Shown: one piece after another, positions 20,577 to 53,646 of the stretch | Layout: every line of letters begins with the position of its first letter | Numbering within the stretch: the stretch's first letter is position 1 | IMG/VR virus record: IMGVR_UViG_3300032092_003271 | Coordinates: 32,920 to 96,919 of that record | Source of the DNA: a virus | Length of the DNA: 64,000 nt | Strand: one strand, 5' to 3' | Position numbers and translations under genes: made by a program | Notes under the pieces: model-generated | Database searches by the model: none | The model's input: only the letters and a program-made list of their open reading frames with translations | What the model was told of the DNA's origin: nothing

Positions 20577-20606
20577 ATCAAAAAGATATAAATAAGGTTA
20601 TGGTTG

Positions 20607-20613
20607 TATTTAT
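20607..20613 (+). promoter_or_regulatory. TATTTAT motif; T4-late-like TATAAATA lies just upstream
   Basis: A TATTTAT copy ends 11 bases before the ATG at 20625. An exact TATAAATA (T4 late-promoter core) lies on the same strand at 20587-20594. Either could start transcription of the fibre genes. Confidence 0.45.
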
Positions 20614-20624
20614 TTAGAAATACA

Positions 20625-21650: not shown

Positions 21651-21662
21651 AATTGATATAGA

Positions 21663-29949: not shown

Positions 29950-29961
29950 AAAAAAAACAAA

Positions 29962-30198
29962 ATGGAAGAAACACAAACAACAGAACAAGTGCAACAACAT
30001 ATTAGTGCGGCATTTGACTCGGTTAATTTAATTAACGAAGAAATCACTAAAGAAATGACCGATGAACGTAAAAACACAATAAAACGTAATGGTGATCATC
30101 TTGAAATTATGATGGCAAAAGGTTGGTTTTTATCGGGATGTACTGAACAACAGATTATCGATATTAATAATTCTATTACTACGTCAAAGTCGTATTAA
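29962..30198 (+). CDS. Small hypothetical protein
   Basis: A 78-residue, mostly helical acidic protein (EETQTTEQVQQHISAAFDSVN... IIDINNSITT). The ATG at 29962 is preferred to an upstream one that overlaps the sulfotransferase gene by 80 bases, and it follows a TATTTAT motif. No known family is recognised. Its position between sulfotransferase and GT9-like genes may be incidental. Confidence 0.55.
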   Translation: MEETQTTEQVQQHISAAFDSVNLINEEITKEMTDERKNTIKRNGDHLEIMMAKGWFLSGCTEQQIIDINNSITTSKSY

Positions 30199-30210
30199 AA
30201 AATATTATAA

Positions 30211-32354: not shown

Positions 32355-35147
32355 TTACCTATTATCAATATATAAATTTACTTCACTATAATACTCAATA
32401 AAGTGATCGTTCCATAGATCCCACTTTATATCAATACCATCAACTGAAAATACTTGATGGTTTGTAAATTCCTTTAAATATAAATCTCTAAACTTTCTAA
32501 ATTTGTTTTTGGTTTCTTTATTATGAAGATGCCACTCACCTGAGATTTTTTTAACATTGTTTTTAATCCAATTAAAGTTTTCTTCCGTAAAGATATTATA
32601 TTCACCACCTTCAGAATCTGTTTTAAGAAAATCAATTTTAGTAATACCATGTTCTTTAATTAAAGAATCAAATCTAACTGAATCCATTTGTGTTTGTACA
32701 CCAAGTTCTGCAGTAAACATATTACCCGTGTTTACAACCCCATCAGTGTCGGTAATTCCTTTATTAATGTGAACTACAAAATCTTTGTTTGTGTTTTTAA
32801 CTAAGTATGGGAACTCCTCATCACAAGGTTCAATAGAATAAATTACCGAAGGTTTTTTGTTTAATATAGAATATGTGAATGGACCAATACTTGCACCAAT
32901 GTCCATAACAACATCACCTTCTTCTACGGTAAAAAACTTCTCATAAATTCGTTCCTCAAAGATTTCTTTATTAATTGCCCATCTAAACCAATCATTAGAT
33001 TTACCCCAATCAAAATCAATTCTATCCCCAAGTAGTAAGTCAATTTTATCTATGACCATTTGTGATGTTATATTTTTGGTGCACTCAAATTGACGACTTG
33101 TGTTTTTATGTAGTGGACACCAATACCAATCACCAGCATCAAATTTTTCTTTATTAAAACATCCGTGACATACGTTCTCATTAATCACTCGATGAACTCC
33201 TGTTAACATCTCAGCGTTTTTTTCACTAAATCCTGAAATCAAAATTAAAGGTAATCCTGTAGACCATGCCAACCAAGATAATCCTGAACCTAAACCAATG
33301 AAGAATTCACAAGTTGCAAGATCATCAATTACTTCTTGAATTGATCCACCCTTAAATTTAGTTGCTCCATTTGGATTTTTGTTACCCATATATCCACTAT
33401 CTTCTTTTGAATATATCATAACTTCGTATCCTTTGTCTGTTAGATACTTAACCACTTCTTCCCAACCCAAAAGGTTGTTCCAATATTTTGATTGTGCCGT
33501 TGAATGGACCCCAATACCAATTTTCTTTTTCTTTGGTACCTTAGGTATTTTTAATTTTGGTTTCACTTCATTATAAGGTAACCCTAAAATATCAGACGCA
33601 GTTTGTTGTAATGGTATGTGTCTAAAATCATTTGGGTGTAAACTATAATTAACATTATCACCATCAAAGAACCAACCTATTTTATACAACGCATATAAAT
33701 CGTGTACTGGTTCACCAGGGTTTATAAATTTTATTTGTGGATATTGATCAATAAACAACTCATTCATAAATGTAGAAACAATCAATTCACAATTATGTTT
33801 TTTTCTAAACTCCTCACATTGTGGGAACCAAGCCATTGTATCGCCTAATGATTTAGATTCAAGTGCAATATAGACTCTTTTCTTGTTAAAGTTTGGTACG
33901 TGTTCGTAAACTAATTCATCTCCATCAAAAACTTTACAAGTAATATTTTTAAAATACTCAACAATAAGTTTTGACCACATATTTGCCTTAATCTCAGATT
34001 GATACATTAAATTATTTAAATCCCAAAACTCGACTCTATATAATTTTTGTGAACTACCTTTAATATCGATAGTTGGGTTACCAACAAAATGAAAACTAAA
34101 ACTTACATTATCTCTTGGTTCTTTATGCGTAATTTCAGTTTCTTCAAATGTTTTTATGTAAAGATTTTTGGTATCTTCGGATCTATAATGTTTATTGATT
34201 ATTTTAACTGACTTATAGATATCGATTAATCTTTTTGTTATTATCGACCAATCAAAATCAATCCTTGTTTCTATGGTTTCATGAAATAACTTACCCCAAT
34301 TTTCAATAACATATTTAAGACCACTAACTACTGACTCGGTGGATCTTCCAATCTTTCTTAATCCACCTATTTTTGGTGTTCCATCGTAAGTACCAACTGT
34401 TGGTAGTCCACATGACATAGCTTCTAATAATGTTAGATTAGGGTGTCCCGCTTCTAAAATCGATGGGTGTGCAAATATGGTATGTGATCGATATAATTCT
34501 CTTATTGATTCTTCGTCAGGGTTTCCATAAACCACATTTAACTTTTTATATTCTAATAAGTCAGGGTTAGCATCAAAAAAGTTTTTGTTGTTATCAGGAC
34601 CCGCAACTGTAATCTCAAGATCTAATTCTTTTGCTGCTTCTATGGCATATCTAAAACCTTTTCTATCAATTGATTGGTTATATGCAAAACCATTATTTGC
34701 AAGACATAATATTTTATGATTGAGCGATCCTTTTGGGTTTTGGTTATCAAAAAAATTAGTATCAACACCATGAGACAAATAAAATAATTTATCAGTTTCA
34801 ACAAAATAATCTACCAAAAATTCCGCATGACAAAATGATATAACAGAATTCTTTATTGCTTTTAAATTTAAATTATAAAGATCCGATTCTCTTCCATATT
34901 CAACAACGTGATGATCATGTAAAGAGAAAATATATGGTATTCCCATTTCATGGGCCTCAATAGCCAAGTTTGCAACATGGATATGAATTATGTCTGAGTT
35001 TCTATCTACTTCACTTAAATATTTAATTTCAGACTCATGACCTTGTTCTATTGAGTTTAAGTGGTAATTCCAAATTACCTTTTCAATTGCCCCCCAACCA
35101 TTTGGTGGTATTGCTATTAAACCTGGTGTTACTTGTGTTATCTTCAT
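32355..35147 (-). CDS. GT4-like + BAHT-like O-heptosyltransferase + FkbM methyltransferase fusion
   Basis: A 930-residue three-part enzyme. Residues 1-320 are a GT-B family 4-like domain (HPSILEAGHPNLTLLEAMSCG near 227-247). Residues about 420-710 match bacterial autotransporter heptosyltransferases (Aah/TibC): VYIALESKSLGDTMAWFP, IGVHSTAQSKYWNN, FIGLGSGLSWLAWS and four cysteines at 660, 663, 677 and 689 in the family's metal-binding finger order (CHGC...WCP...FEC). Residues about 740-930 are an FkbM-type SAM methyltransferase (VMDIGASIGPF, FLKTDSEGGEY). BAHT enzymes transfer heptose to Ser on autotransporter repeats. Here repeat fibres are encoded nearby, so self-fibre glycosylation is proposed (inference). 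It is the last gene of its operon. Confidence 0.82.
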   Translation of the reverse strand: MKITQVTPGLIAIPPNGWGAIEKVIWNYHLNSIEQGHESEIKYLSEVDRNSDIIHIHVANLAIEAHEMGIPYIFSLHDHHVVEYGRESDLYNLNLKAIKNSVISFCHAEFLVDYFVETDKLFYLSHGVDTNFFDNQNPKGSLNHKILCLANNGFAYNQSIDRKGFRYAIEAAKELDLEITVAGPDNNKNFFDANPDLLEYKKLNVVYGNPDEESIRELYRSHTIFAHPSILEAGHPNLTLLEAMSCGLPTVGTYDGTPKIGGLRKIGRSTESVVSGLKYVIENWGKLFHETIETRIDFDWSIITKRLIDIYKSVKIINKHYRSEDTKNLYIKTFEETEITHKEPRDNVSFSFHFVGNPTIDIKGSSQKLYRVEFWDLNNLMYQSEIKANMWSKLIVEYFKNITCKVFDGDELVYEHVPNFNKKRVYIALESKSLGDTMAWFPQCEEFRKKHNCELIVSTFMNELFIDQYPQIKFINPGEPVHDLYALYKIGWFFDGDNVNYSLHPNDFRHIPLQQTASDILGLPYNEVKPKLKIPKVPKKKKIGIGVHSTAQSKYWNNLLGWEEVVKYLTDKGYEVMIYSKEDSGYMGNKNPNGATKFKGGSIQEVIDDLATCEFFIGLGSGLSWLAWSTGLPLILISGFSEKNAEMLTGVHRVINENVCHGCFNKEKFDAGDWYWCPLHKNTSRQFECTKNITSQMVIDKIDLLLGDRIDFDWGKSNDWFRWAINKEIFEERIYEKFFTVEEGDVVMDIGASIGPFTYSILNKKPSVIYSIEPCDEEFPYLVKNTNKDFVVHINKGITDTDGVVNTGNMFTAELGVQTQMDSVRFDSLIKEHGITKIDFLKTDSEGGEYNIFTEENFNWIKNNVKKISGEWHLHNKETKNKFRKFRDLYLKEFTNHQVFSVDGIDIKWDLWNDHFIEYYSEVNLYIDNR

Positions 35148-35148
35148 A

Positions 35149-36870
35149 TTATGTAAATTCTAAATAACCGTATATGTTTTTATTTTCCATTTCATATAAA
35201 AACTCATCAGTTTCTGAGTTATATACTTTTATTTTTTTAATATTCTCCCAATAGATATTATATGACCACGCCCAAGAATAATTAAGGTAATGTATTATCT
35301 CTTCTTCATGATTATCAAATTCTATTATTATTTTTCTAATAACTCTATGGTTATTATAGTTAAATGATAAAATAGCTAAAGAATCTTGATTGTTAACTTT
35401 ATAAATTTTTGTGGTACAACCTTCATAAAACTCAGCTAAAGTTGATTGACTTGTTTCTGTATTCCACATTGTGTTAGGAAAATCTAAATTCATTTGGTCA
35501 CTACCATACTTACTTAAAATTAAATTGGTATTTGAATTCATTAGATTATGGAACATATAAACCTCTACTGATTTAAACTCATCACCAAATCCGTTATTTT
35601 TTAAATATTTTTTATATGATTCTTCACTATCAACTCTATTTATTTTTTCTAAAAAGAAATCAATTTCTGAGAAAAAATAATGAAAAGATATATCTTTTTC
35701 ATTAAAATAAAATAACGATTTTTTATTTTCGTTTTTACATAGTTCAGGAATTGTTTTCATAAATTCATATGATTCATCAGAAAACAAATCATCAACTTCC
35801 ATTCTTTGGAAATGTGTGTACCCAAGTGATTTTGCTAAATCCAAACAATTAAATAGATTACACATTACTGATAACCCATGTCTTTGTAATTCGGGAGTGA
35901 CTTCATGAATAGTAAATCCTTCATACGATTTCCATAGATCAACATAACTTACATTTTCATATTGTTCTTTAAACAATTTGTTTTCACTATTATATAAAAA
36001 ATAATCAACTTGTTCTATAAGATCTTGTGGTGGAACTTTATTAGAAACTAAAAGAATTTTATGATCGTGTTTTTTTAAATTACTAATTGCATCTCTAAGT
36101 TTAGATAATAAAGAATCATTGGATACAAAGCAATCTATAATTGTAATTGTTTTAATGTTTTTATTATAATCTTCTTTTAATCTATTTTTTACTTTGTTAA
36201 TATTTAATTCTTTTTCTTCCTCCGATAATGTTGAGAATATTCCTTTTTTAGAAATTCTGTAGTGACCCCCAAATATGTTTAAAAATTTTATTTTACCTTG
36301 TTTACTCAATTCATAATTAAGTGGCCAATCAACAAAAGGTAATCCCTCAAAATATTTTTTTATTATATTTTTTTTATTCCTAAAAACCCTACCAAAACCA
36401 ACATAATTAGTTTCTAATAAATCTTCAGTTGTAATATCTTCTTTTAGTGAAATTATAAATGCATCTTCTTCTTTAGGTGATGCATAATCTTCGTATAGAT
36501 ATTTTGTCGCAGTAAAAGTCATTACGTAGTCTGTGTTTTCATCTAAAAAATCAACCTGTTTTTGTAATTTATCTTTATCACCAAACAAATCATCACCATC
36601 TAAATACGCAATATATTCTGATTCAGAATTATCTAAAAGTAGTTTTATATTATTAAGAGCACCTAAATTTTCAGACCCATCCAAAATTTTAATTTCAGGG
36701 TATTTTAATTTTAATTCATTTAATTTTTCTTGAGTTTTATCAGTTGAGTTATCATCTCTAATTATAACATCAAAATCAAAATTAGTTTTTTGTTTAAAAA
36801 TTGAGTCGATACAATCAAAGACGTATTGTTCAAAATTATATAATGGTACTATAACTGATAATTTTTTCAT
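35149..36870 (-). CDS. GT2 glycosyltransferase with second GT-A-like domain
   Basis: The N-terminal part of this 573-residue protein is a classical family 2 domain: LSVIVPLYNFEQYV, IIRDDNSTDKTQ and YLDGDDLFGD (D91-x-D93-D94). From about residue 240 a second domain starts with TITIIDCFVSNDSLL and includes HFQRMEVDDLF, which looks like another GT-A acidic site (D-D near a strand). The C-terminal 100 residues are beta-rich and Trp/Tyr-rich, as in carbohydrate-binding ends. It overlaps the NeuD/PglD-like gene by 4 bases. Donors are unknown. Confidence 0.75.
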   Translation of the reverse strand: MKKLSVIVPLYNFEQYVFDCIDSIFKQKTNFDFDVIIRDDNSTDKTQEKLNELKLKYPEIKILDGSENLGALNNIKLLLDNSESEYIAYLDGDDLFGDKDKLQKQVDFLDENTDYVMTFTATKYLYEDYASPKEEDAFIISLKEDITTEDLLETNYVGFGRVFRNKKNIIKKYFEGLPFVDWPLNYELSKQGKIKFLNIFGGHYRISKKGIFSTLSEEEKELNINKVKNRLKEDYNKNIKTITIIDCFVSNDSLLSKLRDAISNLKKHDHKILLVSNKVPPQDLIEQVDYFLYNSENKLFKEQYENVSYVDLWKSYEGFTIHEVTPELQRHGLSVMCNLFNCLDLAKSLGYTHFQRMEVDDLFSDESYEFMKTIPELCKNENKKSLFYFNEKDISFHYFFSEIDFFLEKINRVDSEESYKKYLKNNGFGDEFKSVEVYMFHNLMNSNTNLILSKYGSDQMNLDFPNTMWNTETSQSTLAEFYEGCTTKIYKVNNQDSLAILSFNYNNHRVIRKIIIEFDNHEEEIIHYLNYSWAWSYNIYWENIKKIKVYNSETDEFLYEMENKNIYGYLEFT

Positions 36871-37445
36871 TTATATATTTTTTTTGCAGGGACACCAACG
36901 TATGTTCCAGGTTCGTTTATATTCGATACTACTGCAGCACCCATACCTATTGTGGATAATGAATGGACACTAATTTTTTCTCTAATAGATGAATTATTTC
37001 CCATATAGACACAATCATATATTTTAACATTACCGGAAACTATTGATCCTGGCATCATAGAAAAATAATCACCTATTTCACAATCATGACCAATTTGGTT
37101 TCCCCTATTTAATAATGCGTGTTTACCAATTTTTATGTTTGTTGTTATTATTGAATTTGCTCCAATAAAAGAACCTTCACCAATTTTGACATCATCAGAT
37201 ATGATTGCGGTTGGGTGTATCCATGTGAAATATTTTGTATTTTTTGGTAATCTATTTGCAACGTCAAATCTATTTTTTGGGTCAGCAATTGCTATGATTA
37301 TTTCATATTCTTTGGTGTTAAATTCTGACAATGGTTTTGTGTGTTCATTAACATATTGGTCATCAACAAAACAAGTAATCTTTTCCCCCATCTGAAACAT
37401 AACCTCTCTTGCGTGGCCTCCATAACCTATCAGTGCTTTTTTCAT
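36867..37445 (-). CDS. NeuD/PglD-like sugar acyltransferase
   Basis: The 192-residue protein has the PglD_N Rossmann-like start LIGYGGHAREV (5-15) and a left-handed beta-helix made of hexapeptides (IGEGSFIGANSIITTNIKIGKHA). The catalytic His is placed at H120 in GNQIGHDCEIGD, as in the PglD family, and the end GVPAKKIYK is typical. Such enzymes acetylate amino-sugar nucleotides (PglD on UDP-4-amino-sugars) or sialic acid derivatives. The start of the downstream GT2 gene overlaps its stop. Together with the WlbB-like gene it gives the phage two sugar acyltransferases. Confidence 0.85.
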   Translation of the reverse strand: MKKALIGYGGHAREVMFQMGEKITCFVDDQYVNEHTKPLSEFNTKEYEIIIAIADPKNRFDVANRLPKNTKYFTWIHPTAIISDDVKIGEGSFIGANSIITTNIKIGKHALLNRGNQIGHDCEIGDYFSMMPGSIVSGNVKIYDCVYMGNNSSIREKISVHSLSTIGMGAAVVSNINEPGTYVGVPAKKIYK

Positions 37446-38749
37446 TAGTTAAATCTATATTTTTTAGGATCAAAATAATGTTCATACCAAGATGAAACAT
37501 TTTCATTATAGTAACTCTTCCAAGTATGTGGGGACATACCAATCCACCTTTCTTGTATTGATCTGTTATTATTAGTTTCAATTTTTAATTTAGATAAATT
37601 GGGTAGTGTATTAATGTAAGAATTATTTGCCCACCAAAAATTACCTGAAAAATAATTTTTAAACTCATATTCTAAAAATTTAAAATACTCAACATATAAG
37701 GCTCCTGACAAGTCACAATCTTTATTTTTTAAGTCTTTAAATGGTATACTCCAATTTTCAATACAAAAATATTCTAAACATTCTCTCCATGATTCTATAT
37801 TAGAATCATAAGGTCTTGAGGTTCCTTTTGTGTGAAAATAAAATGTACTTCCACATGGGTTTAAATATGAATAATTTTGTAATTTAATTAAAGTTAAAAA
37901 TTCATCTTCATTTTTTTCATACCAACAAATATTAATTTTCTTATCAATGTCATGGGTTTTAACAATTTTGTTAAACAAATTAAAATCATCATACGATTCT
38001 GTAATAACATTATAAAATATTTGATCAGATCTTTTATATAATCCAAAATCTGATAACTTTTGGAGTTGAGATTGTAATACGTGAACCCAATTATTTTGTA
38101 AAAAATTATGGGAGAATATGGAAACTTTATGATTTTTTATTAAACCAATTCCTCCCCATAAACTATAATGTGTATTTTGTAGTAATTTATGGAATTCATT
38201 ATCTTTTGAGTATTTGTCGTCTTTTTCTTTTGCAAAAAACGTATAATATTCATTATAGTTTTCTATAATTTCGTCCCAAAATTTGTATACAAAAATATCA
38301 TATTCTTTAGTAACATCACTCTCAACAACATCATGAAATGCCAAATAACCGTCATCTGCCAAAAATTGTTTAAATTTATCATAATCATTTTTCACCCCAT
38401 TGTATGAGTGATCCCCGTCAATAAAAATTAAATCAAATTCAACACCTAAATTTTTAATAATTTCAACTGTGTCGTTTGATGTTGAATCCCCAATAATATA
38501 GTTAAAGTTTGGATATGTTTGTTTTATAGTATCAAAATTTTCGTGGTGTTTAATGTCAATTGCAATTACCTTTTCATATAAATGACATAATGCGACTGAA
38601 GTACCACCAAAGTTACTACCAATTTCTAAGGCGTATTTTCTTTTTTTTGTATTACTTAAATGATCTAAAAACAATTTGAATTCTTCGGGTTTTTGTTCAA
38701 TGTTAAATTTTAAACACGAATTCCAAATAGTATTAAAATTATAATTCAT
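37445..38749 (-). CDS. Methyltransf_24-like methyltransferase fused to a glycosyltransferase-like domain
   Basis: A 434-residue fusion. Residues about 30-190 form a class I SAM methyltransferase with ALEIGSNFGGTSVAL, a VIAIDIK strand and IFIDGDHSYNGVKNDY. The C-terminal half (about 205-434) begins VSIFSHNFLQNNWVHVL and contains FYFHTKGTS, a motif I associate with polysaccharide glycosyltransferase-like proteins, then SGNFWWANNSYI. The second domain's function is therefore tentative. It overlaps the next gene by 1 base. The arrangement suggests that sugar transfer is followed by methylation of the glycan by one polypeptide (inference). Confidence 0.7.
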   Translation of the reverse strand: MNYNFNTIWNSCLKFNIEQKPEEFKLFLDHLSNTKKRKYALEIGSNFGGTSVALCHLYEKVIAIDIKHHENFDTIKQTYPNFNYIIGDSTSNDTVEIIKNLGVEFDLIFIDGDHSYNGVKNDYDKFKQFLADDGYLAFHDVVESDVTKEYDIFVYKFWDEIIENYNEYYTFFAKEKDDKYSKDNEFHKLLQNTHYSLWGGIGLIKNHKVSIFSHNFLQNNWVHVLQSQLQKLSDFGLYKRSDQIFYNVITESYDDFNLFNKIVKTHDIDKKINICWYEKNEDEFLTLIKLQNYSYLNPCGSTFYFHTKGTSRPYDSNIESWRECLEYFCIENWSIPFKDLKNKDCDLSGALYVEYFKFLEYEFKNYFSGNFWWANNSYINTLPNLSKLKIETNNNRSIQERWIGMSPHTWKSYYNENVSSWYEHYFDPKKYRFN

Positions 38750-38750
38750 T

Positions 38751-39545
38751 CTAATTACTGTTGTTTAATGAGTAGGAGCTTTTACTTGAGTCCCAAGCTA
38801 AATTTATAATGTGAAAATTTTTATGACATAAACTTTTATATTTTTTTGACCATCTAATGGCAAACTCTAATTCAGTTCTCATTTCATTTGTGTCGTAATC
38901 GGTTGAAAATTCACCAATACTTAAAAATCTTTTGGCGTGGTTAACACCAGGTCTTAATGAATAACTAGGCCAATTTGTATACATCATCCAAAGAGTTGGG
39001 ATCATTGTTTGTGTTGCCGAAACCTCATCTAAAAATAAATGATCATTTATTGGTCTATTTGGATCATAATACCATTCCCAATAATCTCCAATAGTTTTAG
39101 GTTGTATTTCGGGTGGAAAATTTTTATATGACTGAGAAAACCCAACATAACCATATTCTTCATGGTTTTCTAAAAGGTCTATGGTTTCTTTAATATTAAA
39201 ATGATTCACAAAAAGATAATCATCCTCCAACATAAAAAAATAATCGGTCTCTGTGTCAATTAGTTTTTTTCTCATTTCATTTAAAATTCTTGAGTGTCTA
39301 TACCCATCCTCAAAAGAATTTTTATAAAAATGTGTCACTATTATATTTTTATTTGGAAACTTATCCTGTAATAGATGTTCCATATTTATTTTGTCCATTT
39401 CAGATGACGAGTCATCAAAAAATATAATATTGTCAATAATCTCCAAATCCTTACAAAATGTGACAAAACCACGAAGAGTCATTTGTAATAATTCAAATCT
39501 TTTTGATGACGTTATTGTTAAAGAAATTTTTTTGTTATTGTACAT
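38751..39545 (-). CDS. GT-A (GT2-like) glycosyltransferase
   Basis: The start at 39545 is preferred because it lies 1 base beyond the upstream stop, the usual spacing here; an ATG seven codons earlier would overlap. The 264-residue protein begins with ISLTITSSKRFELL and carries FFDDSSSE, then FFMLEDDYLFVNHF, a metal-binding acidic motif typical of family 2-type enzymes. A YVGFSQSYKNFP loop and conserved Trp residues follow. Donor and acceptor are not predictable. Confidence 0.7.
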   Translation of the reverse strand: MYNNKKISLTITSSKRFELLQMTLRGFVTFCKDLEIIDNIIFFDDSSSEMDKINMEHLLQDKFPNKNIIVTHFYKNSFEDGYRHSRILNEMRKKLIDTETDYFFMLEDDYLFVNHFNIKETIDLLENHEEYGYVGFSQSYKNFPPEIQPKTIGDYWEWYYDPNRPINDHLFLDEVSATQTMIPTLWMMYTNWPSYSLRPGVNHAKRFLSIGEFSTDYDTNEMRTELEFAIRWSKKYKSLCHKNFHIINLAWDSSKSSYSLNNSN

Positions 39546-39546
39546 A

Positions 39547-42144
39547 TTATTGTTTGTATACTTCAAATTTAGATAAGTCAGGATAAGGTAATTCTAAATC
39601 CTCATTATGTTTTGGCATTCCGTCTACTTTATAAAATTGGTTCATAAGAAGTAAACCTCTTGATGCTATTTCTGGCATCATATAAAAATTCCAACCCAAC
39701 ATGTCAAAGTCATCTTCATGATACGAACATTCGTTTCTTCCCGAATATCTCGCTCGTTTAAACCATTTGTATGCCTCATAATCGTCAGTAATAATTGCAC
39801 CACCTTTACCAAGTTTTAAATGTTTGTATGGTCCTGTAAATGACAAACACATATGTGTATTTGGAATGTACATGTCTGTTGTAAATCTTAACGCACTATC
39901 CCATACTCTTGTTGGGTATAATTGATATGCGCCTTTTAATGTTAAACTATTAACTGATTCAAATTCAACCTTTCCCCCTGCATGTATAATCTCACAAGGA
40001 ACTGAAGGGTATGTACGTGATGGAATTCTTATAGTTTGACCTTTTATGTTTTCATACATTAAAGCCAAAAACAAAGCGTTACTTTGGTTATCTACAGTAA
40101 CTGCATATGGGGCTCCTGTGTAATCACAAAGAACTTGTTCAAAATCTTTAGTTACTTGATAAGTTGATTTCCCAAGTGATCCAGGTCTTTTAAATCTTTC
40201 ATTTTTTGGTTTTGCAAAAATAACACCATGTTCAACTGACTCATCAGATCTTATTTGTTTTCCCATTTCAAACACTATAATTTTATATTCAAAATCATTT
40301 CGTTTTAATTTCTCAATTATTGGTGTAATTTCATTGTTATAATTTCCATGAAACTCAACCATAAATCTATCAACTAATTTTATTTGTTCATCAGTCACAG
40401 ATTCAAAGAAAGGATATTCACCACCCTCAATATCACATTTTAATAATGATATTCTTTCATAATTGTTATCTTTTAAAATATCATCTAAAGTTATTGTATC
40501 ACACTCAATAAGATTATTTAATTGACCGTAGTTAGGATCATCAGTTCCAAAATAATTTGACCCAATAGTTGTGTTCTCCATTGAGAATCTAAATGGAATT
40601 TTTGTATGTTCTTTATAAATTGGATTCATGTAGATCACAGATCTTTCATTATCATCGTCCAACAAAGTTTCAATACTATCCCTTAGGTAAGGATTTGCTT
40701 CTACTAATATTACTTTCTTTGCATTAATTGAATACATGTATTTTGCAAATAACCCAACATTGGCACCAATATCTATAACTGTATTCAAATTATCTAAATC
40801 TAAACCACTAAAACATCTGTCAATAAAAAACTCGTGATAATTAACATAGTTACAATCAAATGGTTTAAAATTGAATGATGGGATATTTGGTTTTACATCA
40901 TTAACAACCAATTCTTTTGAACCTAATAATTCATTGTTTAAATTATAAAACTCAATTCTAAATCCTCTGAAATTTTTCATTCCTTCAAATTTCATAACAT
41001 GGGTTGGAATTGGGATAATAAAATAAGATAATGGTTCTATAATATTTAAATTGAACCAATATAGTGGTGCGTTTGATGTCATACATCTTATGGTAATGTT
41101 CAGGTTTATTTTTTCTGAATAACCATAATTTAATATGATTTTATTTTCGATACCAACCCAACTAACATCAAACATATTTCCTACGTTTGATATACCTAAA
41201 GTGTTTAATAGTATTTGTATGTCTTTATTAATGTCTCCTGTCATAAATTTAATATTTTCATCGTTATTATACTTACCACAATAAACGTCCAAATTAAACA
41301 TCATCATTGGTAATTCGTATTTGATTGCTTCTTTAATTGCAATCGGGTTTAGTTCTTTGTTAAATCTGTCTCCTTTTGATGGGAATAAAAATAAATCAGA
41401 TGCTTGTAAAAAAGTATCAACATCTGATCTTTCACCCCAAACCACACAGTTATCTGGTTTGTCTTTCATTAAGGGCTCCCAATAATGTCTGAAGTTGTCG
41501 GCTTGATTTCCAATAAAGTGAAATAATATTTTTTCATCTTTTAATTGTTTTGCCATCTCAAAGACATAACCTTGATTTTTTCTTTCAGTAAATAGACCAA
41601 CAATCACAACATGTTTCCATTCAGGATCCAACATAAATTGTTCTTGAGCCCATTGTTTATCCGGTTTTACAATGTCAATTGGATATTCAATAATTTCGTA
41701 AGGTACATCAAACATTGAGTATCTAAATGCGTTAAATGGACTTACAAAAATAAATTTATCGGGAAACCATCTTTTGTTTGTTACAGGAATACTTGAATCG
41801 TGAGTCGTTTCAAATAGTTTGTATGTTCTTTCTTTAATAAATAATTTCTCATTAATTTCTTCAGGTATAAAATGTTCACAAAATTCTTCCAAACAAACGA
41901 TGTCTGGTTGAAATCCATGGATCAAATCAAATATTTTATTTTTATCTTCCCCTAAAACAAATAAATTTTCAGGTCCAATAAGATCTTTAATTCTATTTTT
42001 TTGAACAACAAAGGCGTCTCCATGCCAACTCCACTCAACACATTTGATTATATAATCATCTTTTAATAATTCTATTTTATTTACCAATACTTGCGGTAAC
42101 CCTCCTGTGGATAGATGAGGTGCGACAAATAAGATCTTTTTCAT
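39547..42144 (-). CDS. GT4-like + FkbM methyltransferase + DegT-like aminotransferase fusion
   Basis: An 865-residue three-part protein. Residues 1-340 are GT-B (FVAPHLSTGGLPQVL, VVIVGLFTERKNQGY, FLFPSKGDRFNKE). About 435-640 is an FkbM methyltransferase (VIDIGANVGLFAKY, LLKCDIEGGEYPFF). About 650-865 resembles the first two-thirds of DegT/DnrJ/EryC1 sugar aminotransferases: AVTVDNQSNALFLAL, RIPSRTYPSVPCEIIHAGG, VWDSAL, a candidate PLP lysine K774 in SFTGPYKHLKLGKGG, and LGWNFYMMPEIASRG. It lacks the family's C-terminal portion and the usual GEGG is GKGG. It could supply the transamination step for a 3-amino sugar, or be a binding domain (inference). It heads the minus-strand operon. Confidence 0.78.
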   Translation of the reverse strand: MKKILFVAPHLSTGGLPQVLVNKIELLKDDYIIKCVEWSWHGDAFVVQKNRIKDLIGPENLFVLGEDKNKIFDLIHGFQPDIVCLEEFCEHFIPEEINEKLFIKERTYKLFETTHDSSIPVTNKRWFPDKFIFVSPFNAFRYSMFDVPYEIIEYPIDIVKPDKQWAQEQFMLDPEWKHVVIVGLFTERKNQGYVFEMAKQLKDEKILFHFIGNQADNFRHYWEPLMKDKPDNCVVWGERSDVDTFLQASDLFLFPSKGDRFNKELNPIAIKEAIKYELPMMMFNLDVYCGKYNNDENIKFMTGDINKDIQILLNTLGISNVGNMFDVSWVGIENKIILNYGYSEKINLNITIRCMTSNAPLYWFNLNIIEPLSYFIIPIPTHVMKFEGMKNFRGFRIEFYNLNNELLGSKELVVNDVKPNIPSFNFKPFDCNYVNYHEFFIDRCFSGLDLDNLNTVIDIGANVGLFAKYMYSINAKKVILVEANPYLRDSIETLLDDDNERSVIYMNPIYKEHTKIPFRFSMENTTIGSNYFGTDDPNYGQLNNLIECDTITLDDILKDNNYERISLLKCDIEGGEYPFFESVTDEQIKLVDRFMVEFHGNYNNEITPIIEKLKRNDFEYKIIVFEMGKQIRSDESVEHGVIFAKPKNERFKRPGSLGKSTYQVTKDFEQVLCDYTGAPYAVTVDNQSNALFLALMYENIKGQTIRIPSRTYPSVPCEIIHAGGKVEFESVNSLTLKGAYQLYPTRVWDSALRFTTDMYIPNTHMCLSFTGPYKHLKLGKGGAIITDDYEAYKWFKRARYSGRNECSYHEDDFDMLGWNFYMMPEIASRGLLLMNQFYKVDGMPKHNEDLELPYPDLSKFEVYKQ

Positions 42145-45957: not shown

Positions 45958-46230
45958 ATGGAAACACAAATACAAGAATACGATAACAGAGAATTTATGA
46001 TTTTCTCTGTGACTGAATTAGATCAGATTGATTTTACTCAGGTTTTGGAAACCTCGATAGATACCGTTAGAAAATCAGTTGATGAAACAAAAACATTTGT
46101 TAAGTGGGATGGATCAATGCCTGAGTGTGTAAGTAACCTTACGACAAAAGAAGGTCCTTATAATTACCATGAAATTTTACAAATATTAAATACACCTGAA
46201 TGGACTAACCCAAATCAAATGGAAGGATAA
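45958..46230 (+). CDS. Small hypothetical protein
   Basis: A 90-residue acidic protein (EYDNREFMIFSVTELDQIDFTQVLE... FVKWDGSMPECV). No known domain. Its stop overlaps the next start (TAATG), and it lies between two fibre genes, so a fibre-assembly role is a guess. Confidence 0.55.
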   Translation: METQIQEYDNREFMIFSVTELDQIDFTQVLETSIDTVRKSVDETKTFVKWDGSMPECVSNLTTKEGPYNYHEILQILNTPEWTNPNQMEG

Positions 46231-46532
46231 TGCCAAACTATGTCCAAATAAATTCAATATCAGGAACGTCACCATATACAATATTTGTGTGTGATCAGAC
46301 TTTCACATATTGTTATTTAGCTGCGGGACCCGTAATAATTACAACACCATATACATTTATGGTTCCACCACCATTAACTAATACCACAGATGTGATTGTT
46401 AAAATAATAGATTCAAACGGATGTGACACTTGGGTTCCATTATCTTGTGGTACATATTACGGAAAAGAATTTGAGGACTTTGCAATATTTTTATTTCAAG
46501 ATACAAATATTTATTTATTTGAAGGTCAGTAA
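46230..46532 (+). CDS. Small hypothetical beta-rich protein
   Basis: A 100-residue protein with beta-strand-like segments (YVQINSISGTSPYTIFVCDQTFTYC; VIVKIIDSNGCDTWVPL) and four Cys. It could be a small immunoglobulin-like virion module. It ends 11 bases before the collagen-like fibre start. No family is recognised. Confidence 0.55.
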   Translation: MPNYVQINSISGTSPYTIFVCDQTFTYCYLAAGPVIITTPYTFMVPPPLTNTTDVIVKIIDSNGCDTWVPLSCGTYYGKEFEDFAIFLFQDTNIYLFEGQ

Positions 46533-48456: not shown

Positions 48457-49701
48457 ATGAGAATATTTGTGCAGATTGCTGCTTATCGTGACCCCCAACT
48501 TATACCAACAATTAAATCTATGTTGGAGAAAGCAAAAAAACCAAAAAATATTATTATTGGTATTGCAAGACAATTTCATCCTGAAGATGGTTTTGATGAT
48601 TTAACTGAATATGAAAATGATGATCGTTTTCGTATTTTAAATATCCCACACACTGAATCAAAAGGCGTTTGTTGGGCAAGACATCAAGTCCAACAATTAT
48701 ATGGAGGTGAAGAATACACACTTCAAATCGATTCTCATATGAGGTTTGAAAAAGATTGGGATGACACTTTAATCAAAATGATTAAAAGATTACAAAAACT
48801 TGGTTATAAAAAACCTTTGTTAACAGGTTACGTTTCATCTTTTGATCCTGATAATGATCCTGAAGGTAGAGTTAATGAACCTTGGAGAATGGCGTTTGAT
48901 AGATTCACACCTGAAGGTGTTGTATTTTTCTTACCTGAGGTAATTCCTGATTGGAATAAAATTAAAGATCCAATTCCTGCAAGATTTTATTCGGCTCACT
49001 TCTGTTTCACTTTAGGACAATTCTCAACTGAAGTACAACACGATCCCGAATTTTATTTTCATGGTGAAGAAATTTCAATAACCGTTAGAGCATATACTCA
49101 TGGTTATGATTTATTCCACCCAAATAAAGTGGTTATTTGGCATGAATACACAAGAAAAGGTAGGACTAAACAATGGGACGATGATAAAGAATGGTATTTA
49201 AAAAACACCGCATGTCATAAAAAGAATAGACAACTTCTTGGTATTGATGGTGAAAAATATGAAGGAGACTATTATGATTGGTTTGGTAAAGAAAGAACTA
49301 TAAGAGATTATGAAAAATATGCCGGATTGCTATTTGAAACAAGAGCAGTACAACAAGATACTATAGATAAAAAATATCCCCCAAACCATTATGATTTTGA
49401 AAATGAAAATGAATGGAAAAAAAGTTTCTCAACAATATTCAAACACTGTATTGATTTAGATTTAAATCAAGTTCCCGAAACAGACTACGATTTTTGGGTT
49501 GTTGCTTTTCACGATCAAGAACATCAAACAATTTTTAGACAAGATGCCGACGCAAACGAAATAATAAGAATAAAGTCAGACCCTGAGGGATATGGTAAAA
49601 TATGGAGAGAATTCAACACAACAAAAATACCATCGTATTGGGTAGTATGGCCCCACTCAATTTCAAAAGATTGGTGTGATAGAATTGTTGGTAATTTATG
49701 A
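48457..49701 (+). CDS. GT60-like polypeptide GlcNAc-transferase family protein
   Basis: The 414-residue protein resembles the PF11397/GT60 family, whose members add GlcNAc to hydroxyproline of Skp1 in protists or to Thr of mucins in trypanosomes. Visible features are IFVQIAAYRDPQLIPTI at the start, GVCWARHQVQQLYGGEEYTLQIDSHMRF with the D-S-H motif at 92-94, and YSAHFCFTLGQF followed by FHGEEISITVRAYTHG. These enzymes act on protein side chains in the cytosol. The gene lies directly behind a Gly-X-Ser fibre gene, which suggests the fibre as acceptor (inference). No membrane anchor is present. It overlaps the next gene by 4 bases. Confidence 0.78.
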   Translation: MRIFVQIAAYRDPQLIPTIKSMLEKAKKPKNIIIGIARQFHPEDGFDDLTEYENDDRFRILNIPHTESKGVCWARHQVQQLYGGEEYTLQIDSHMRFEKDWDDTLIKMIKRLQKLGYKKPLLTGYVSSFDPDNDPEGRVNEPWRMAFDRFTPEGVVFFLPEVIPDWNKIKDPIPARFYSAHFCFTLGQFSTEVQHDPEFYFHGEEISITVRAYTHGYDLFHPNKVVIWHEYTRKGRTKQWDDDKEWYLKNTACHKKNRQLLGIDGEKYEGDYYDWFGKERTIRDYEKYAGLLFETRAVQQDTIDKKYPPNHYDFENENEWKKSFSTIFKHCIDLDLNQVPETDYDFWVVAFHDQEHQTIFRQDADANEIIRIKSDPEGYGKIWREFNTTKIPSYWVVWPHSISKDWCDRIVGNL

Positions 49702-50585
49702 GAACACTATTTGTAACTTGTTTATACTCAAAACTTTTTGGATCTGAGTTTGGTGGTAGAGATAGTAGAGACGGTCACTACAAAAATTCACTAAAAAGTC
49801 TTTTAAAGATGTCTGACGCTAAATTTATTTGTTATACGTCAGAAGATCAGATAAATGATTTAAAATCTTTTTTCTATAAACAAAACAAATTCAATGAGGA
49901 CCAAATCCAATTCAAAATCTTTGATTTAAAAAATTGTGAATATCATCAAAAAATTTCTGAATTAAGAAAAACTCAAAGTAATTTACTACACGATAGATGT
50001 TATGAAATACAATATTCTAAATTTTTTTGGTGTTTAAAAAATTGTGACAATTCAGATTTTGATTATGTTTTTTGGATAGATGCCGGATTATCACATAGTG
50101 GATTGATACCACCAAAATATTTAGACCAAACAAAAGGATATTGGGAAAAATATTTTGAGTCTGAATTATTTAACAACAAACTTTTAAATAATTTGATTAA
50201 ACATACTGGTGAACAGATTGTGGTGTGCGCAAAAGAAAATCAAAGAAACCATTGGTCAAAAACTTTACCAAAAAAATATTATAACAATTATAGTTTCGAT
50301 AGACATATTATTGGTGGTTTGTTCGGAGGTAAAAAAGAAAATCTAAAAAACTTTTGTAATTTATTTGACGAAAACATCAAAAATGTTTTAAACAACGAAA
50401 CTGAACTTTTCTTAGAGGAAAACATAATGAGTTTAATGTTCTTTAATAATAATGAATTATTCAATCCACTTCTATTTGACATTTGGTGGCATGAGGAAGA
50501 CTTTATACCTGGTGTTGATTTAAAAGAATTGACCTTAAAAGAAAAAAGTTTTTATAAAATTATAGAAAATCTAAATAATATATAA
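49698..50585 (+). CDS. HtrL/YibB-like glycosyltransferase-type protein
   Basis: A 295-residue protein with the central motif YVFWIDAGLSHSGL (123-136), characteristic of the HtrL/YibB/WlaTC family, and a later HIIGGLFGGKKENL. These proteins are found in LPS and surface-glycan loci and are regarded as probable glycosyltransferases. It starts inside the last codons of the GT60-like gene and ends 1 base before the next. A related domain forms the first half of the following protein. Confidence 0.68.
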   Translation: MRTLFVTCLYSKLFGSEFGGRDSRDGHYKNSLKSLLKMSDAKFICYTSEDQINDLKSFFYKQNKFNEDQIQFKIFDLKNCEYHQKISELRKTQSNLLHDRCYEIQYSKFFWCLKNCDNSDFDYVFWIDAGLSHSGLIPPKYLDQTKGYWEKYFESELFNNKLLNNLIKHTGEQIVVCAKENQRNHWSKTLPKKYYNNYSFDRHIIGGLFGGKKENLKNFCNLFDENIKNVLNNETELFLEENIMSLMFFNNNELFNPLLFDIWWHEEDFIPGVDLKELTLKEKSFYKIIENLNNI

Positions 50586-50586
50586 G

Positions 50587-52254
50587 ATGATAACATTAGT
50601 TACAGGATTATGGGACATTGGTAGGGGAGACCTATCAGAAGGATGGTCAAGATCTTTTGATCATTATTTAAGTAAATTCGAACAACTATTACAAGTAGAT
50701 TGTAATATGATAATTTTTGGTGATAGTGAGTTAGAAAAGTTTGTTAATCAAAGACGAAGTGTAACCAACACACAATTTGTATTAAGAGATTTAAATTGGT
50801 TTAGAAATAATGAATTTTATAATCAAATTCAATCAATAAGAACAAATCCAAAATGGTATAATCTTGCAGGTTGGTTAAAAGACTCAACACAGGCAAGATT
50901 AGAAATGTACAACCCATTAGTAATGTCAAAAATGTTTTTATTACATGATGCGGTATTATTAGATAAATTTAATTCTGAAAAACTATATTGGATTGATGCT
51001 GGCTTAGCAAACACTGTTCACATGGGTTACTTAACTCATGATAAAGTATTACCAAGGATTGATGATCTTTTTACTAATTTTACATTTATTTGTTTTCCAT
51101 ATGTTGCAGATAAAGAAATACATGGTTTTGATATTAATAAAATGGATATCATTACAGGAACAAGAGTCGATAAAGTTTGTAGAGGAGGATTCTTTGGGGG
51201 TCCTGTAAATCTAATAAGACAAATGAATACCCTTTATTATAATTTAATAAAATCAACATTAGAAAGAGGATTAATGGGAACGGAAGAAAGCCTGTTTTCA
51301 ATACTACTATATAACAACCCAACGATAATTGATTATGTCGAGATTGAGTCTAACGGTTTAATTTATAAATTTTTTGAGGATGTAAAGAACAATAACTTAG
51401 TTATTAAATCTTTAAAAAAAGAAAGGGTTATTAAAAATAAAACCAACGGTCAAGTTGGTTTATATGTTATAACATTTAATAGTCCAAAACAATTTGAAAC
51501 TCTTATCAATTCTATGTTACTATATGACTCTGAATTTTTAGAAAAAACTAATAAATTTTTATTAAATAACTCAACCGATCTATCGACAACACCTGAATAT
51601 ATTAAGTTATGTGAACAATATGGATTTGAACATATTAAAAAAGATAATATAGGAATTACAGGTGGTAGAGTATTTGTTGCAGATCATTTTGAAAATTCTG
51701 AAATGGAGTACTATTTGTTTTTTGAAGATGACATGTTTTTCAACATGGGTGCGGATGATGTATGTAAAAATGGGTTTAATAGAAATGTAAGACATCTATA
51801 TAGGAAAGTTCTACAAATTATGAGAAAAGAAAATTTTGATTTTCTTAAATTAAATTATACGGAATTTTACGGTAGTCATGAAAGACAATGGTCTTGGTAT
51901 AATGTAGATCAAGAGTTTAGATCAAAACATTGGCCAAACAATCAAAAACTACCAACACACGGACAAGATCCTAACTCTCCTTTTTTAGAATTTAAAAACA
52001 TAAAATCAGTCGACGGTTTACCATACGCAACAGGTGAGATTTATTTATCTAATTGGCCAATTATTTTATCAAGAGAGGGTAATTACAAGTGTTATATTGA
52101 AACTAAATTTGATCATCCTTACGAACAAACTTTAATGTCTCATTGTTATAAACAAACAATCAAAGGTAGAATTCATGCTGGTTTACTTCTCTTAACTCCA
52201 ACAGAACACAATAGGTTTGACTTCTATGATGGTAAATTGAGAAAAGAATTCTAA
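50587..52254 (+). CDS. HtrL/YibB-like domain fused to a GT-A glycosyltransferase domain
   Basis: A 555-residue fusion. The first half (1-280) carries LYWIDAGLANTVH (133-145) and a GGFFGGPVNLI segment parallel to the neighbouring HtrL-like protein. The second half (about 290-555) begins VGLYVITFNSPKQFETLINSM and has a YYLFFEDDMFF acidic motif near residue 377, as in GT2-type enzymes, with SNWPIILSREG later. The two activities may act in succession on the same glycan (inference). It closes the three-gene transferase set behind the second collagen-like fibre. Confidence 0.7.
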   Translation: MITLVTGLWDIGRGDLSEGWSRSFDHYLSKFEQLLQVDCNMIIFGDSELEKFVNQRRSVTNTQFVLRDLNWFRNNEFYNQIQSIRTNPKWYNLAGWLKDSTQARLEMYNPLVMSKMFLLHDAVLLDKFNSEKLYWIDAGLANTVHMGYLTHDKVLPRIDDLFTNFTFICFPYVADKEIHGFDINKMDIITGTRVDKVCRGGFFGGPVNLIRQMNTLYYNLIKSTLERGLMGTEESLFSILLYNNPTIIDYVEIESNGLIYKFFEDVKNNNLVIKSLKKERVIKNKTNGQVGLYVITFNSPKQFETLINSMLLYDSEFLEKTNKFLLNNSTDLSTTPEYIKLCEQYGFEHIKKDNIGITGGRVFVADHFENSEMEYYLFFEDDMFFNMGADDVCKNGFNRNVRHLYRKVLQIMRKENFDFLKLNYTEFYGSHERQWSWYNVDQEFRSKHWPNNQKLPTHGQDPNSPFLEFKNIKSVDGLPYATGEIYLSNWPIILSREGNYKCYIETKFDHPYEQTLMSHCYKQTIKGRIHAGLLLLTPTEHNRFDFYDGKLRKEF

Positions 52255-52281: not shown

Positions 52282-52794
52282 ATGGAGTTTTTTATCAGAA
52301 AAAATGCAACACTCCCTGTGTTGAAGATTAACGCTATTAAAGACGGAAGAAGTGACTACAATAGGTCTATGAGATTTATTGAAGATACTGATATCTTTTT
52401 TTCTATGGTGGATACAGAAACTAATATTCCTAGAATAACCTCAAGACCTGCCGGTCTCATGAAAAAAGATCCGTTAGATATTAGTACGGACGCTGAGTAT
52501 TATGTGTACTATCAATTCACACCATTTGATACAAAAAAAGTTGCAAGATATAAAGGTCAATTTTTATTTAGAAATGAAACTGGAATATTGACCCTACCTT
52601 TGAGTGAGGAAATATATATAAACGTAATTGAAAGTTTTATAATTGACGATTTTGAATTCCAAAGTTGTTATGTTGTAGATTACCCTTGTTGTTTTGGTCC
52701 CGTACCAATTCCTCCAGGACCTGTTCCACCAGGACCAACAACGACAACAACAACTATAATACCAACAACGACCACAACAAGTATTTATATTTAA
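52282..52794 (+). CDS. Virion protein with Thr-rich C-terminal tail
   Basis: A 170-residue protein whose first 135 residues are paralogous to the N-terminus of the next gene (MEFFIRKNATLPVLKI; AEYYVYYQFTPFD; YINVIESFI). The beta-rich domain is followed by a short Pro-Gly linker and a Thr-rich tail (about 150-166). It may be a baseplate- or fibre-attached small protein. The Thr tail is a possible O-glycan acceptor (inference). No known family is recognised. Confidence 0.6.
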   Translation: MEFFIRKNATLPVLKINAIKDGRSDYNRSMRFIEDTDIFFSMVDTETNIPRITSRPAGLMKKDPLDISTDAEYYVYYQFTPFDTKKVARYKGQFLFRNETGILTLPLSEEIYINVIESFIIDDFEFQSCYVVDYPCCFGPVPIPPGPVPPGPTTTTTTIIPTTTTTSIYI

Positions 52795-52803: not shown

Positions 52804-53646
52804 ATGGAATTTACAATAGGACAAAATTCAAGTTTACCACTACTTAAATTACAAGTAGTGAATGATGGTACACAAAATTTTGATTCAATGATGAAGTTTA
52901 TTGAGACCTCATCTGTATTTTTTTCAATGATTAGAACGGAAAATGGAATTCCAAAAATATTAACAAAAAGTGCGGGGTTTGTCGAAAAATTAGATATGGA
53001 CCCAAACGCTTCACCTGAATATTATGTTTACTATAGATTTACAACTCAAGACACTTCAAAAGTCGGAAGGTTTGAAGGTCAGTTTTTATTTATAAACGAA
53101 GAAGGTACTTTAGTTTTACCAATAAGAGAAAGTTTATATATTAATGTTATTGAAAGTTTCATTGCGAATGATTTAACTTATGATCCTTGTTATGTTTTAG
53201 AATATAAATGTTGTACAACGCCATTCCCTTCACCAACACCAACACCTACAAAAGAACCGGTAATTAGTCCAACACCAACAACAACCGCCACTCCAACACC
53301 GACAATCACTCCAACACCAACAACAACACCAAATAAACCTGTTTGTATTCACCCAAGATATGAAGAATTAATCTATTCAACAACTTTAGATGGTGATTTC
53401 ACTTCTAGTTTGGTTAGTGCATGTGCGGCATTAAATTGTTTAGAGAGTGCTAACTGTACTTATAATGGATATTATGATAGATACTTTAATATTAATGGAC
53501 CAACGGTTGGGTCATTAGCATTCGAAAACGAAACAACTTGTTACCCAACCAATGACACAGGTTATTTTATAATGTGGTTAAACGGGTCCTTCAGCGTCAT
53601 CCAATTTGTAAATGGAGTTTTACAAAATTCCCCTTGTTTATGTTGA
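52804..53646 (+). CDS. Paralogous virion protein with Pro-Thr stalk and C-terminal domain
   Basis: A 280-residue protein paralogous to its upstream neighbour over residues 1-140 (EFTIGQNSSLPLLKL; PEYYVYYRFTTQD; LYINVIESFI). A Pro-Thr stalk (about 143-180) links this base to a C-terminal Cys-containing domain (VCIHPRYEELIYSTTLDGDF... SPCLC). The short version upstream ends where this one extends, suggesting duplication with tip acquisition (inference). The stop lies 85 bases before the polymerase gene. Confidence 0.62.
   Translation: MEFTIGQNSSLPLLKLQVVNDGTQNFDSMMKFIETSSVFFSMIRTENGIPKILTKSAGFVEKLDMDPNASPEYYVYYRFTTQDTSKVGRFEGQFLFINEEGTLVLPIRESLYINVIESFIANDLTYDPCYVLEYKCCTTPFPSPTPTPTKEPVISPTPTTTATPTPTITPTPTTTPNKPVCIHPRYEELIYSTTLDGDFTSSLVSACAALNCLESANCTYNGYYDRYFNINGPTVGSLAFENETTCYPTNDTGYFIMWLNGSFSVIQFVNGVLQNSPCLC

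What the first reader, a model, noticed from the sequence alone, without database searches (positions are those of the whole stretch)
48457..49701. GT60-like polypeptide GlcNAc-transferase directly behind a collagen-like fibre gene
The D-S-H motif in IDSHMRF and flanking conserved segments resemble the Skp1-hydroxyproline/mucin-Thr GlcNAc-transferase family (PF11397), whose members modify protein side chains in the cytosol. The fibre upstream is made of Gly-X-Ser/Thr triplets. A phage-encoded enzyme that glycosylates a bacterial-type collagen in the cytoplasm would be a new system.
Basis: partly seen in the sequence, partly recalled or inferred. Interest (0 to 1): 0.75.

Follow-up and report, generated by a model that had tools for sequence, protein, structure and literature searches.

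The report
Phage mucin-type protein-glycosylation gene cassette
Giant bacterial viruses carry a conserved set of sugar-transfer genes, led by an enzyme related to those that start mucin sugar coats, next to their threonine/serine-rich fibre genes, so they probably sugar-coat their own particles; the neighbouring collagen-like fibre is only one of the likely targets.

Summary
ORF 48457-49701 (+, 414 aa) is a clear PF11397/GT60 member (E 1e-69). Its predicted fold matches mucin-initiating polypeptide GalNAc-transferases best (Z 20; next family 16). The collagen-like gene (69 Gly-X-Y triplets, no proline) ends 47 bp upstream. GT60 opens a conserved cassette: GT60, 0-8 variable sugar genes, then a two-domain HtrL_YibB glycosyltransferase. 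It recurs in hundreds of jumbo-phage contigs, in isolates XacN1, CM1 and RAS14, and on a Saprospiraceae chromosomal contig. Collagen is not the constant partner: it sits directly upstream in 1 of 27 window-lineage representatives and 5 of 26 in a second deep lineage. The commoner neighbour is a Pro/Thr-rich mucin-like segment: a mucin-like or collagen-like gene lies near the cassette in 22/28 and 23/28 loci, against 11% of random genes. In reverse, 10 of 30 contigs chosen only for a (Pro-Thr)5 DNA pattern encode PF11397, against 0/17 (Pro-Ala) and 3/24 (Gly-Thr-Ser). XacN1 virions are reported to contain glycoproteins. Best reading: a phage-encoded mucin-type O-glycosylation system for Thr/Ser-rich virion proteins, collagen-like fibres included. 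Chemistry and acceptor remain untested. New variant of virion glycosylation.

The parts
48457..49701 (+). GT60 / PF11397 polypeptide glycosyltransferase-like protein, 414 aa
   Evidence: AlphaFold2 pLDDT 80.6, best PDB matches GT27 ppGalNAc-T
48730..48738 (+). D92-S93-H94 (DxH) putative metal/nucleotide-binding motif
   Evidence: invariant in alignments A1 and A2; DxH is the shared GT27/GT60 variant of DxD (PMC7185993)
46544..48409 (+). collagen-like fibre protein, 621 aa, two runs of Gly-(Ser/Thr)-Ser triplets, proline-free; candidate acceptor
   Evidence: PF01391 6e-30; triplet count
46230..46532 (+). small 'SPYxxxxCD' fibre-associated protein; homologues precede the fibre gene in both GT60 lineages
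   Evidence: cluster 6, C6 hits
49698..50585 (+). HtrL_YibB-like paralogue (cluster 5), overlaps GT60 by 4 bp; homologue in XacN1 and RAS14
   Evidence: no Pfam match; blastp to cassette genes
50587..52254 (+). two-domain glycosyltransferase (HtrL_YibB PF09612 plus C-terminal GT-A domain), the constant last member of the cassette in the window and XacN1 lineages
   Evidence: AlphaFold2 pLDDT 86.7; GT6-like N domain and GT12/GT13-like C domain
52282..52794 (+). 170-aa protein with C-terminal mucin-like tail PGPVPPGPTTTTTTIIPTTTTTSIY (coding 52714-52788); candidate acceptor
52804..53646 (+). 280-aa protein with mucin-like stretch PSPTPTPTKEPVISPTPTTTATPTPTITPTPTTTPNKPV (coding 53227-53343); candidate acceptor
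32355..42144 (-). second glycan block: GT4/GT9/FkbM fusion, GT2, PglD-like acetyltransferase, RMNT_CmcI-type O-methyltransferase, GT4/FkbM/DegT aminotransferase fusion; possible supplier of further sugars and decorations
20604..24680 (+). second mucin-like (20604-21650) and collagen-like (21663-24680, 1005 aa) fibre pair; candidate acceptors

Best explanation
The ORF encodes a cytosolic GT60-type polypeptide transferase that adds the first sugar (most likely GlcNAc from UDP-GlcNAc) to Thr/Ser in low-complexity Thr/Ser-rich stretches of the phage's own virion fibre proteins. The candidate stretches are the Pro/Thr mucin-like segments downstream and elsewhere, and the proline-free Gly-Ser/Thr-Ser collagen-like fibre just upstream. 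The following genes (an HtrL_YibB-like protein and a two-domain GT-A enzyme, with a lineage-specific set of GT10, GT25, GT2, methyl- and carbamoyl-transferases between them in relatives) extend and decorate the glycan. SHOWN: family, predicted fold, cassette conservation, association with Thr/Ser-rich genes. INFERRED: donor, acceptor, order of addition, virion location, and purpose (protease or antibody shielding, solubility or stiffening of extended fibres, or altered adsorption).
For: (1) PF11397 1e-69; DxH invariant, the variant shared by GT27 and GT60, which share Ser/Thr polypeptide O-glycosylation (PMC7185993). (2) Predicted fold: the top 29 rows are all ppGalNAc-T, Z 17.7-20.3, then SpsA at 16.1; Foldseek 1.9e-10. 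(3) Cassette: in the IMG/VR loci GT60 precedes the two-domain GT, with 0-8 genes between them. Among 50,697 isolate records, GT60 and the full-length two-domain GT occur in exactly the same three. (4) Neighbours: a mucin-like segment in the gene immediately upstream in 14/27 and immediately downstream of the cassette in 11/24 lineage-1 representatives, against 38/1592 genes. Within three genes (mucin-like or collagen-like): 22/28 and, in lineage 2, 23/28, against 11% of random genes. (5) Reverse test: 10/30 contigs chosen only for a (PT)5 DNA pattern encode PF11397, from lineages 31-73% identical to the window's, against 0/17 for (PA)5. (6) The Saprospiraceae chromosomal contig pairs GT60 and the two-domain GT with a divergent surface protein carrying SPTPTTSVSPSNS repeats and a T9SS sorting tail, plus a sulfotransferase. 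[quoted passage not shown] (8) The T. cruzi pp-alpha-GlcNAcT uses KPPTTTTTTTTKPP with Mn (PMC3769586), close to PTTTTTTIIPTTTTTS here.
Against: No biochemistry was found for any phage member. The XacN1 glycoproteins were not identified in the main text. Neighbouring loci share ancestry, so the p-values overstate. Six of 28 lineage-1 representatives have no such gene within three genes of either end. Mucin-like segments also occur far from the cassette and in phages without PF11397 (20/30 of the pattern set). Fibre loci are hot spots for glycosyltransferase morons of other purposes.
Confidence: 0.6

Rival explanations
1. One reading: the enzyme is dedicated to the adjacent collagen-like fibre.
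For: Collagen-like gene 47 bp upstream, 88% Ser/Thr at X and 84% at Y, no proline. The same order (small SPY protein, proline-free GTS/GTN collagen, GT60) recurs in a GT60 lineage 42% identical to the window's, with collagen immediately upstream in 5/26 representatives. GTS-pattern contigs: 3/24 PF11397-positive.
Against: Only 1/27 lineage-1 representatives has collagen immediately upstream. 304, 272 and 192 kb contigs carry GT60 without any collagen hit. Collagen-like repeats similar to the window's occur in the 735 kb LR756501, which has no GT60 hit. The upstream slot is hypervariable.
Confidence: 0.15
2. The cassette modifies the host's surface polysaccharide or LPS (receptor masking, superinfection exclusion), as proposed for glycosyltransferases in tail-fibre hypervariable regions of pelagimyophages.
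For: GT9, GT10, GT25 and GT2 families are typical of LPS/capsule. Published interpretation for similar regions (PMC7029224). Variable gene content resembles O-antigen polymorphism.
Against: The constant first enzyme is of a polypeptide-initiating family. No lipid-carrier initiator, flippase or polymerase was seen in the Pfam results obtained for cassette genes. Association with Thr/Ser-rich genes in three lineages and on a bacterial contig is not expected.
Confidence: 0.2
3. The enzymes glycosylate phage DNA bases.
For: DNA glycosylation is a known role of phage glycosyltransferases and was listed as an option for the moraphage core enzymes (PMC12619734).
Against: GT60/GT27 type, fibre-locus position, and the presence of methyl-, carbamoyl-, fucosyl- and sulfo-type decorators. 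A hydroxymethyl-pyrimidine pathway was not searched for here.
Confidence: 0.05

Closest known systems
Trypanosoma cruzi UDP-GlcNAc:polypeptide alpha-GlcNAc-transferase and Dictyostelium Skp1 GnT1 (CAZy GT60, Pfam PF11397)
   Same: Same Pfam family with DxH motif; the T. cruzi enzyme acts on the Thr-rich mucin peptide KPPTTTTTTTTKPP (PMC3769586)
   Different: Eukaryotic; the T. cruzi enzyme is Golgi-located. The phage enzyme is cytosolic by inference, sits in a phage gene cassette, and its donor and acceptor are untested
ppGalNAc-transferases (CAZy GT27)
   Same: Closest solved folds (Z up to 20.3), DxH motif, polypeptide Ser/Thr initiation
   Different: No detectable sequence match in the PDB profile search; no sign of a GT27-type C-terminal ricin lectin domain in the annotations obtained
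Clostridioides difficile SgtA / BclA3
   Same: Glycosyltransferase gene beside a collagen-like gene; adds GlcNAc to Thr/Ser of the collagen repeat in vitro (PMC7157674)
   Different: Bacterial spore system, Gly-Pro-Thr triplets, beta linkage, enzyme gene upstream; SgtA family membership not tested here
Mycobacteriophage virion glycosylation (Freeman et al. 2023, cited in PMC12619734) and XacN1 virion glycoproteins (PMC5852040)
   Same: Phage-encoded glycosyltransferases and glycosylated virion proteins; XacN1 ORF334 is a homologue of this enzyme; the F1 mycobacteriophage WIVsmall also lists an HtrL/YibB protein with glycosyltransferases (PMC10453261)
   Different: In mycobacteriophages the C-termini of capsid and tail-tube subunits are modified; no mucin-like or collagen-like acceptor described
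Moraphages (PMC12619734)
   Same: Large aquatic Bacteroidota phages of 200-307 kb with PolB; four core orthogroups annotated as putative glycosyltransferases
   Different: In the passages read, the paper does not name GT60, the cassette, or a protein acceptor; identity of this window's lineage with moraphages not tested

Membership tests
Pfam PF11397 / CAZy GT60 | Profile match above curated cut-off over the catalytic domain | tested here: met
   1.1e-69, 236 bits vs cut-off 21, profile positions 95-348 plus 2-43
Pfam PF11397 / CAZy GT60 | DxH in place of DxD | tested here: met
   D92-S93-H94 invariant; literature PMC7185993
Pfam PF11397 / CAZy GT60 | GT-A fold close to GT27 | tested here: met
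   Z 17.7-20.3 to ppGalNAc-T, next family 16.1
Pfam PF11397 / CAZy GT60 | Transfers GlcNAc from UDP-GlcNAc to a protein hydroxyl (Thr or hydroxyproline) | not testable with these tools
   Needs enzyme assay
HtrL_YibB (PF09612) | Profile match, N-terminal 249 residues of the 555-aa protein | tested here: met
   9.8e-18, 65 bits vs cut-off 24.1
Collagen triple helix (PF01391) | Gly-X-Y profile above cut-off | tested here: met
   6e-30, 103 bits vs cut-off 27.2
Collagen triple helix (PF01391) | Imino-acid content or other stabilisation giving a real triple helix | tested here: inconclusive
   0 Pro in 163 triplets of two window genes; helix formation not testable
SgtA/BclA3-type collagen glycosylation | Glycosyltransferase gene adjacent to collagen-like gene | tested here: met
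   Window; also 5/26 lineage-2 representatives, but 1/27 in lineage 1
SgtA/BclA3-type collagen glycosylation | GlcNAc on Thr/Ser of the collagen repeat | not testable with these tools
   Needs mass spectrometry or assay
Phage virion glycosylation | Sugar-modified virion protein | not testable with these tools
   Reported for the homologue-bearing phage XacN1 only (PMC5852040)
Anti-phage defence (PADLOC) | Any defence model match in the three cassette proteins | tested here: not met
   0 families

The most novel reading that the evidence does not exclude
Jumbo phages of Bacteroidota and Pseudomonadota encode a complete mucin-type O-glycosylation pathway (a GT60 initiator of GT27-like fold, a two-domain extender and interchangeable decorators) that coats Pro/Thr mucin-like and proline-free collagen-like fibres. 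This would make 'phage mucins' with lineage-specific glycans, and sugar on Thr/Ser may substitute for proline or hydroxyproline in stabilising the collagen-like rods.
Probability: 0.45. Interest if true: 0.85.

Novelty: new variant of a known kind. Interest (0 to 1): 0.7.

Why it matters
If true, mucin-type protein O-glycosylation, usually thought of as eukaryotic, is a widespread self-coating system of giant phages, with a movable sugar code that may affect adsorption, neutralisation and particle stability. It gives a testable function to the glycosyltransferases annotated in large aquatic phages, a role to the HtrL_YibB family (annotated as unknown function), and a source of cytosolic polypeptide glycosyltransferases for making O-glycoproteins in E. 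coli.

Tried and rejected
Collagen as the obligate partner: rejected by its absence near or in several large GT60 contigs, though retained as one acceptor class after it recurred in lineage 2. A sequence link from the family profile to solved structures found nothing meaningful (T7 RNA polymerase at E 0.4), so the GT27 link rests on predicted fold only. Bacterial PF11397 in 395 sampled genomes of the Saprospiraceae MAG's phylum: apart from that MAG only weak partial hits, so no wider bacterial comparison was possible. Defence-system reading: no PADLOC hit. Promoter/terminator scan around the cassette: promoter-like sites at shuffle level, terminator-like sites within about one standard deviation of it. 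Literature on a phage mucin/GT60 system: none found in the held library. Freeman et al. 2023 is not held, so it is cited second-hand.

Full report
OBSERVATION. The window is bases 32920-96919 of a 96,919-base virus record. ORF 48457-49701 on the + strand encodes 414 aa and matches PF11397 'Glycosyltransferase (GlcNAc)' with E 1.1e-69 and phrog_24687 with E 1.4e-158. The IDSHMRF motif is present at residues 91-97. D92-S93-H94 is invariant among 25 relatives down to 65% identity and in the comparison with XacN1, 50% identical. The upstream gene 46544-48409 is collagen-like by profile. It has 69 Gly-X-Y triplets, mostly Gly-Ser-Ser and Gly-Thr-Ser, with no proline. Downstream genes follow with a 4-base overlap and a 1-base gap, which suggests one transcription unit (inference).

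WHAT THE ENZYME IS. An AlphaFold2 model from 25 sequences (pLDDT 80.6) has polypeptide GalNAc-transferases as its nearest solved structures: Z 20.3 for ppGalNAc-T10, and the top 29 entries are all of this family. The first unrelated entry (SpsA, GT2) is at 16.1 (Foldseek 1.9e-10). A published GT-A analysis places GT60 with GT27, notes the shared DxH motif, and cites shared Ser/Thr polypeptide O-glycosylation (PMC7185993). Sequence alone does not reach GalNAc-transferases in the PDB.

THE CASSETTE. A scan of IMG/VR gave 330 relatives; the best 80 were read. GT60 is followed by 0-8 variable genes and then a ~555-aa protein with an N-terminal HtrL_YibB domain, often followed by small structural genes and a family B DNA polymerase. 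The variable genes include GT25, GT10, GT2, GT34, GT7C-like, methyltransferase, DegT aminotransferase and nucleotidyltransferase types. The two-domain protein folds as two GT-A units: the N-terminal one is closest to GT6 enzymes, the C-terminal one to B4GALNT1, GnT-I and POMGnT1. In 50,697 phage records GT60 occurs in three isolates (XacN1, CM1, RAS14), and the full-length two-domain enzyme in exactly the same three. There the order is GT60, carbamoyltransferase, HtrL-like gene, two-domain enzyme.

WHAT SITS NEXT TO IT. Collagen-like genes adjoin GT60 in this window's closest relatives but in only 1 of 27 dereplicated lineage-1 loci. Large contigs G010 (304 kb), G025 (272 kb) and G024 (192 kb) have GT60 and no collagen hit. 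The commoner neighbour is a Pro/Thr/Ser-rich 'mucin-like' stretch. It was defined as a 20-residue window with at least 75% S+T+P, at least 45% S+T and at most 2 Gly; this rule was set after a first look at Ser/Thr content in some of the same loci, so it is not blind for lineage 1, but lineage 2, the XacN1 lineage and the reverse test were examined afterwards. Such a stretch is in the gene just upstream in 14/27 and just downstream of the cassette in 11/24 loci, against 38 of 1592 genes in five large genomes. Counting mucin-like or collagen-like genes within three genes: 22/28, against 11% of random genes. A second GT60 lineage (48 relatives found, 28 representatives; separated from the others on the tree, 100/99) gives 23/28, with collagen-like genes immediately upstream in 5/26. 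A member of it, L396, repeats the window's order of small 'SPY' gene, proline-free collagen, GT60. In this window the mucin-like tails are in the proteins at 52282-52794 and 52804-53646.

REVERSE TEST. Contigs were taken from IMG/VR only because they hold a DNA pattern for (Pro-Thr)5. Of 30 of at least 44 kb, 10 encode PF11397 above its cut-off. The control pattern (Pro-Ala)5 gave 0 of 17 and a Gly-Thr-Ser pattern 3 of 24. Fisher p is 0.006 for PT against PA and 0.07 for PT against GTS. The ten enzymes range from 73% to 31% identity to the window's, so several lineages contribute.

A BACTERIAL VERSION. Locus L083, a contig of an uncultured Saprospiraceae bacterium with uvrB and other chromosomal genes, has GT60 and the two-domain enzyme. 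Divergent to them is a protein with a signal-like N-terminus, long SPTPTTSVSPSNS repeats and a Por_Secre_tail sorting domain, followed by a sulfotransferase. This suggests that the acceptor class is the mucin-like repeat, independently of phage fibres.

EXPERIMENTAL TOUCHPOINTS FROM PAPERS. [quoted passage not shown] ORF334 is the GT60 homologue. T. cruzi: the alpha-GlcNAc-transferase uses KPPTTTTTTTTKPP with Mn (PMC3769586). C. difficile SgtA adds GlcNAc to Thr and Ser of collagen-repeat peptides of BclA3, encoded next door (PMC7157674). Moraphages: four core orthogroups annotated as putative glycosyltransferases in large Bacteroidota phages, role open (PMC12619734). From general knowledge, not tested here: glycosylated threonine can stabilise collagen helices that lack hydroxyproline, which fits a proline-free, Thr/Ser-saturated collagen-like rod.

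MECHANISM. Most likely (0.6): GT60 primes Thr/Ser of extended repeats on virion fibre proteins in the host cytosol, and the downstream enzymes extend and cap. Shown: family, predicted fold, cassette, association. Inferred: donor, acceptor, direction, function. Rivals: collagen-only (0.15), host surface polysaccharide (0.2), DNA (0.05).

NOVELTY. Phage-encoded virion glycosylation and collagen-repeat O-GlcNAc are both known, so this is not categorically new. A conserved mucin-type initiation cassette tied to mucin-like and proline-free collagen-like phage proteins was not found in the held literature.

LIMITS. Representatives are related and share orthologous neighbours, so p-values are indicative. 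Gene calls are from a simple ORF caller. The background set is five genomes of the same broad group.

Noticed in passing
window 20604-26821: A second fibre block: protein with two mucin-like stretches, a 1005-aa proline-free collagen-like protein, and three laminin-G-domain proteins in a row.
   Followed up: partly
window 29121-31089: A sulfotransferase (PF13469) and a weak GT9-like gene follow the second fibre block; a sulfotransferase also accompanies the bacterial GT60 locus L083.
   Followed up: partly
window 32355-42144 (-): Block of large fused glycan enzymes, including GT4/GT9/FkbM and GT4/FkbM/DegT three-domain fusions, a GT2, a PglD-like acetyltransferase and a rhamnosyl-O-methyltransferase-like gene, facing the fibre locus.
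   Followed up: partly
G016 (290,710 b), gene at 42567; also G007, G015, G027: Collagen-like ORFs of 2,800-3,400 aa in related phages; the G016 protein has 877 Gly-X-Y triplets, 98% Thr/Ser at X, almost no proline, and lies a few kb upstream of the GT60 cassette.
   Followed up: partly
L399 2233-3558 (-): Next to a distant GT60 relative (31% identity, DAH motif): a protein with long VGVGVG runs and an intein/Hint-like C-terminal stretch; not explained.
   Followed up: no
L398 48-1055: The most divergent full-length phage GT60 (32% identity) sits beside a GDP-mannose 4,6-dehydratase-like gene and sugar genes, not an obvious fibre; it may be a different use of the family.
   Followed up: no
L049 489-1706: One GT60 copy carries an in-frame stop codon; possibly a decaying or frameshifted copy at a contig edge.
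   Followed up: no
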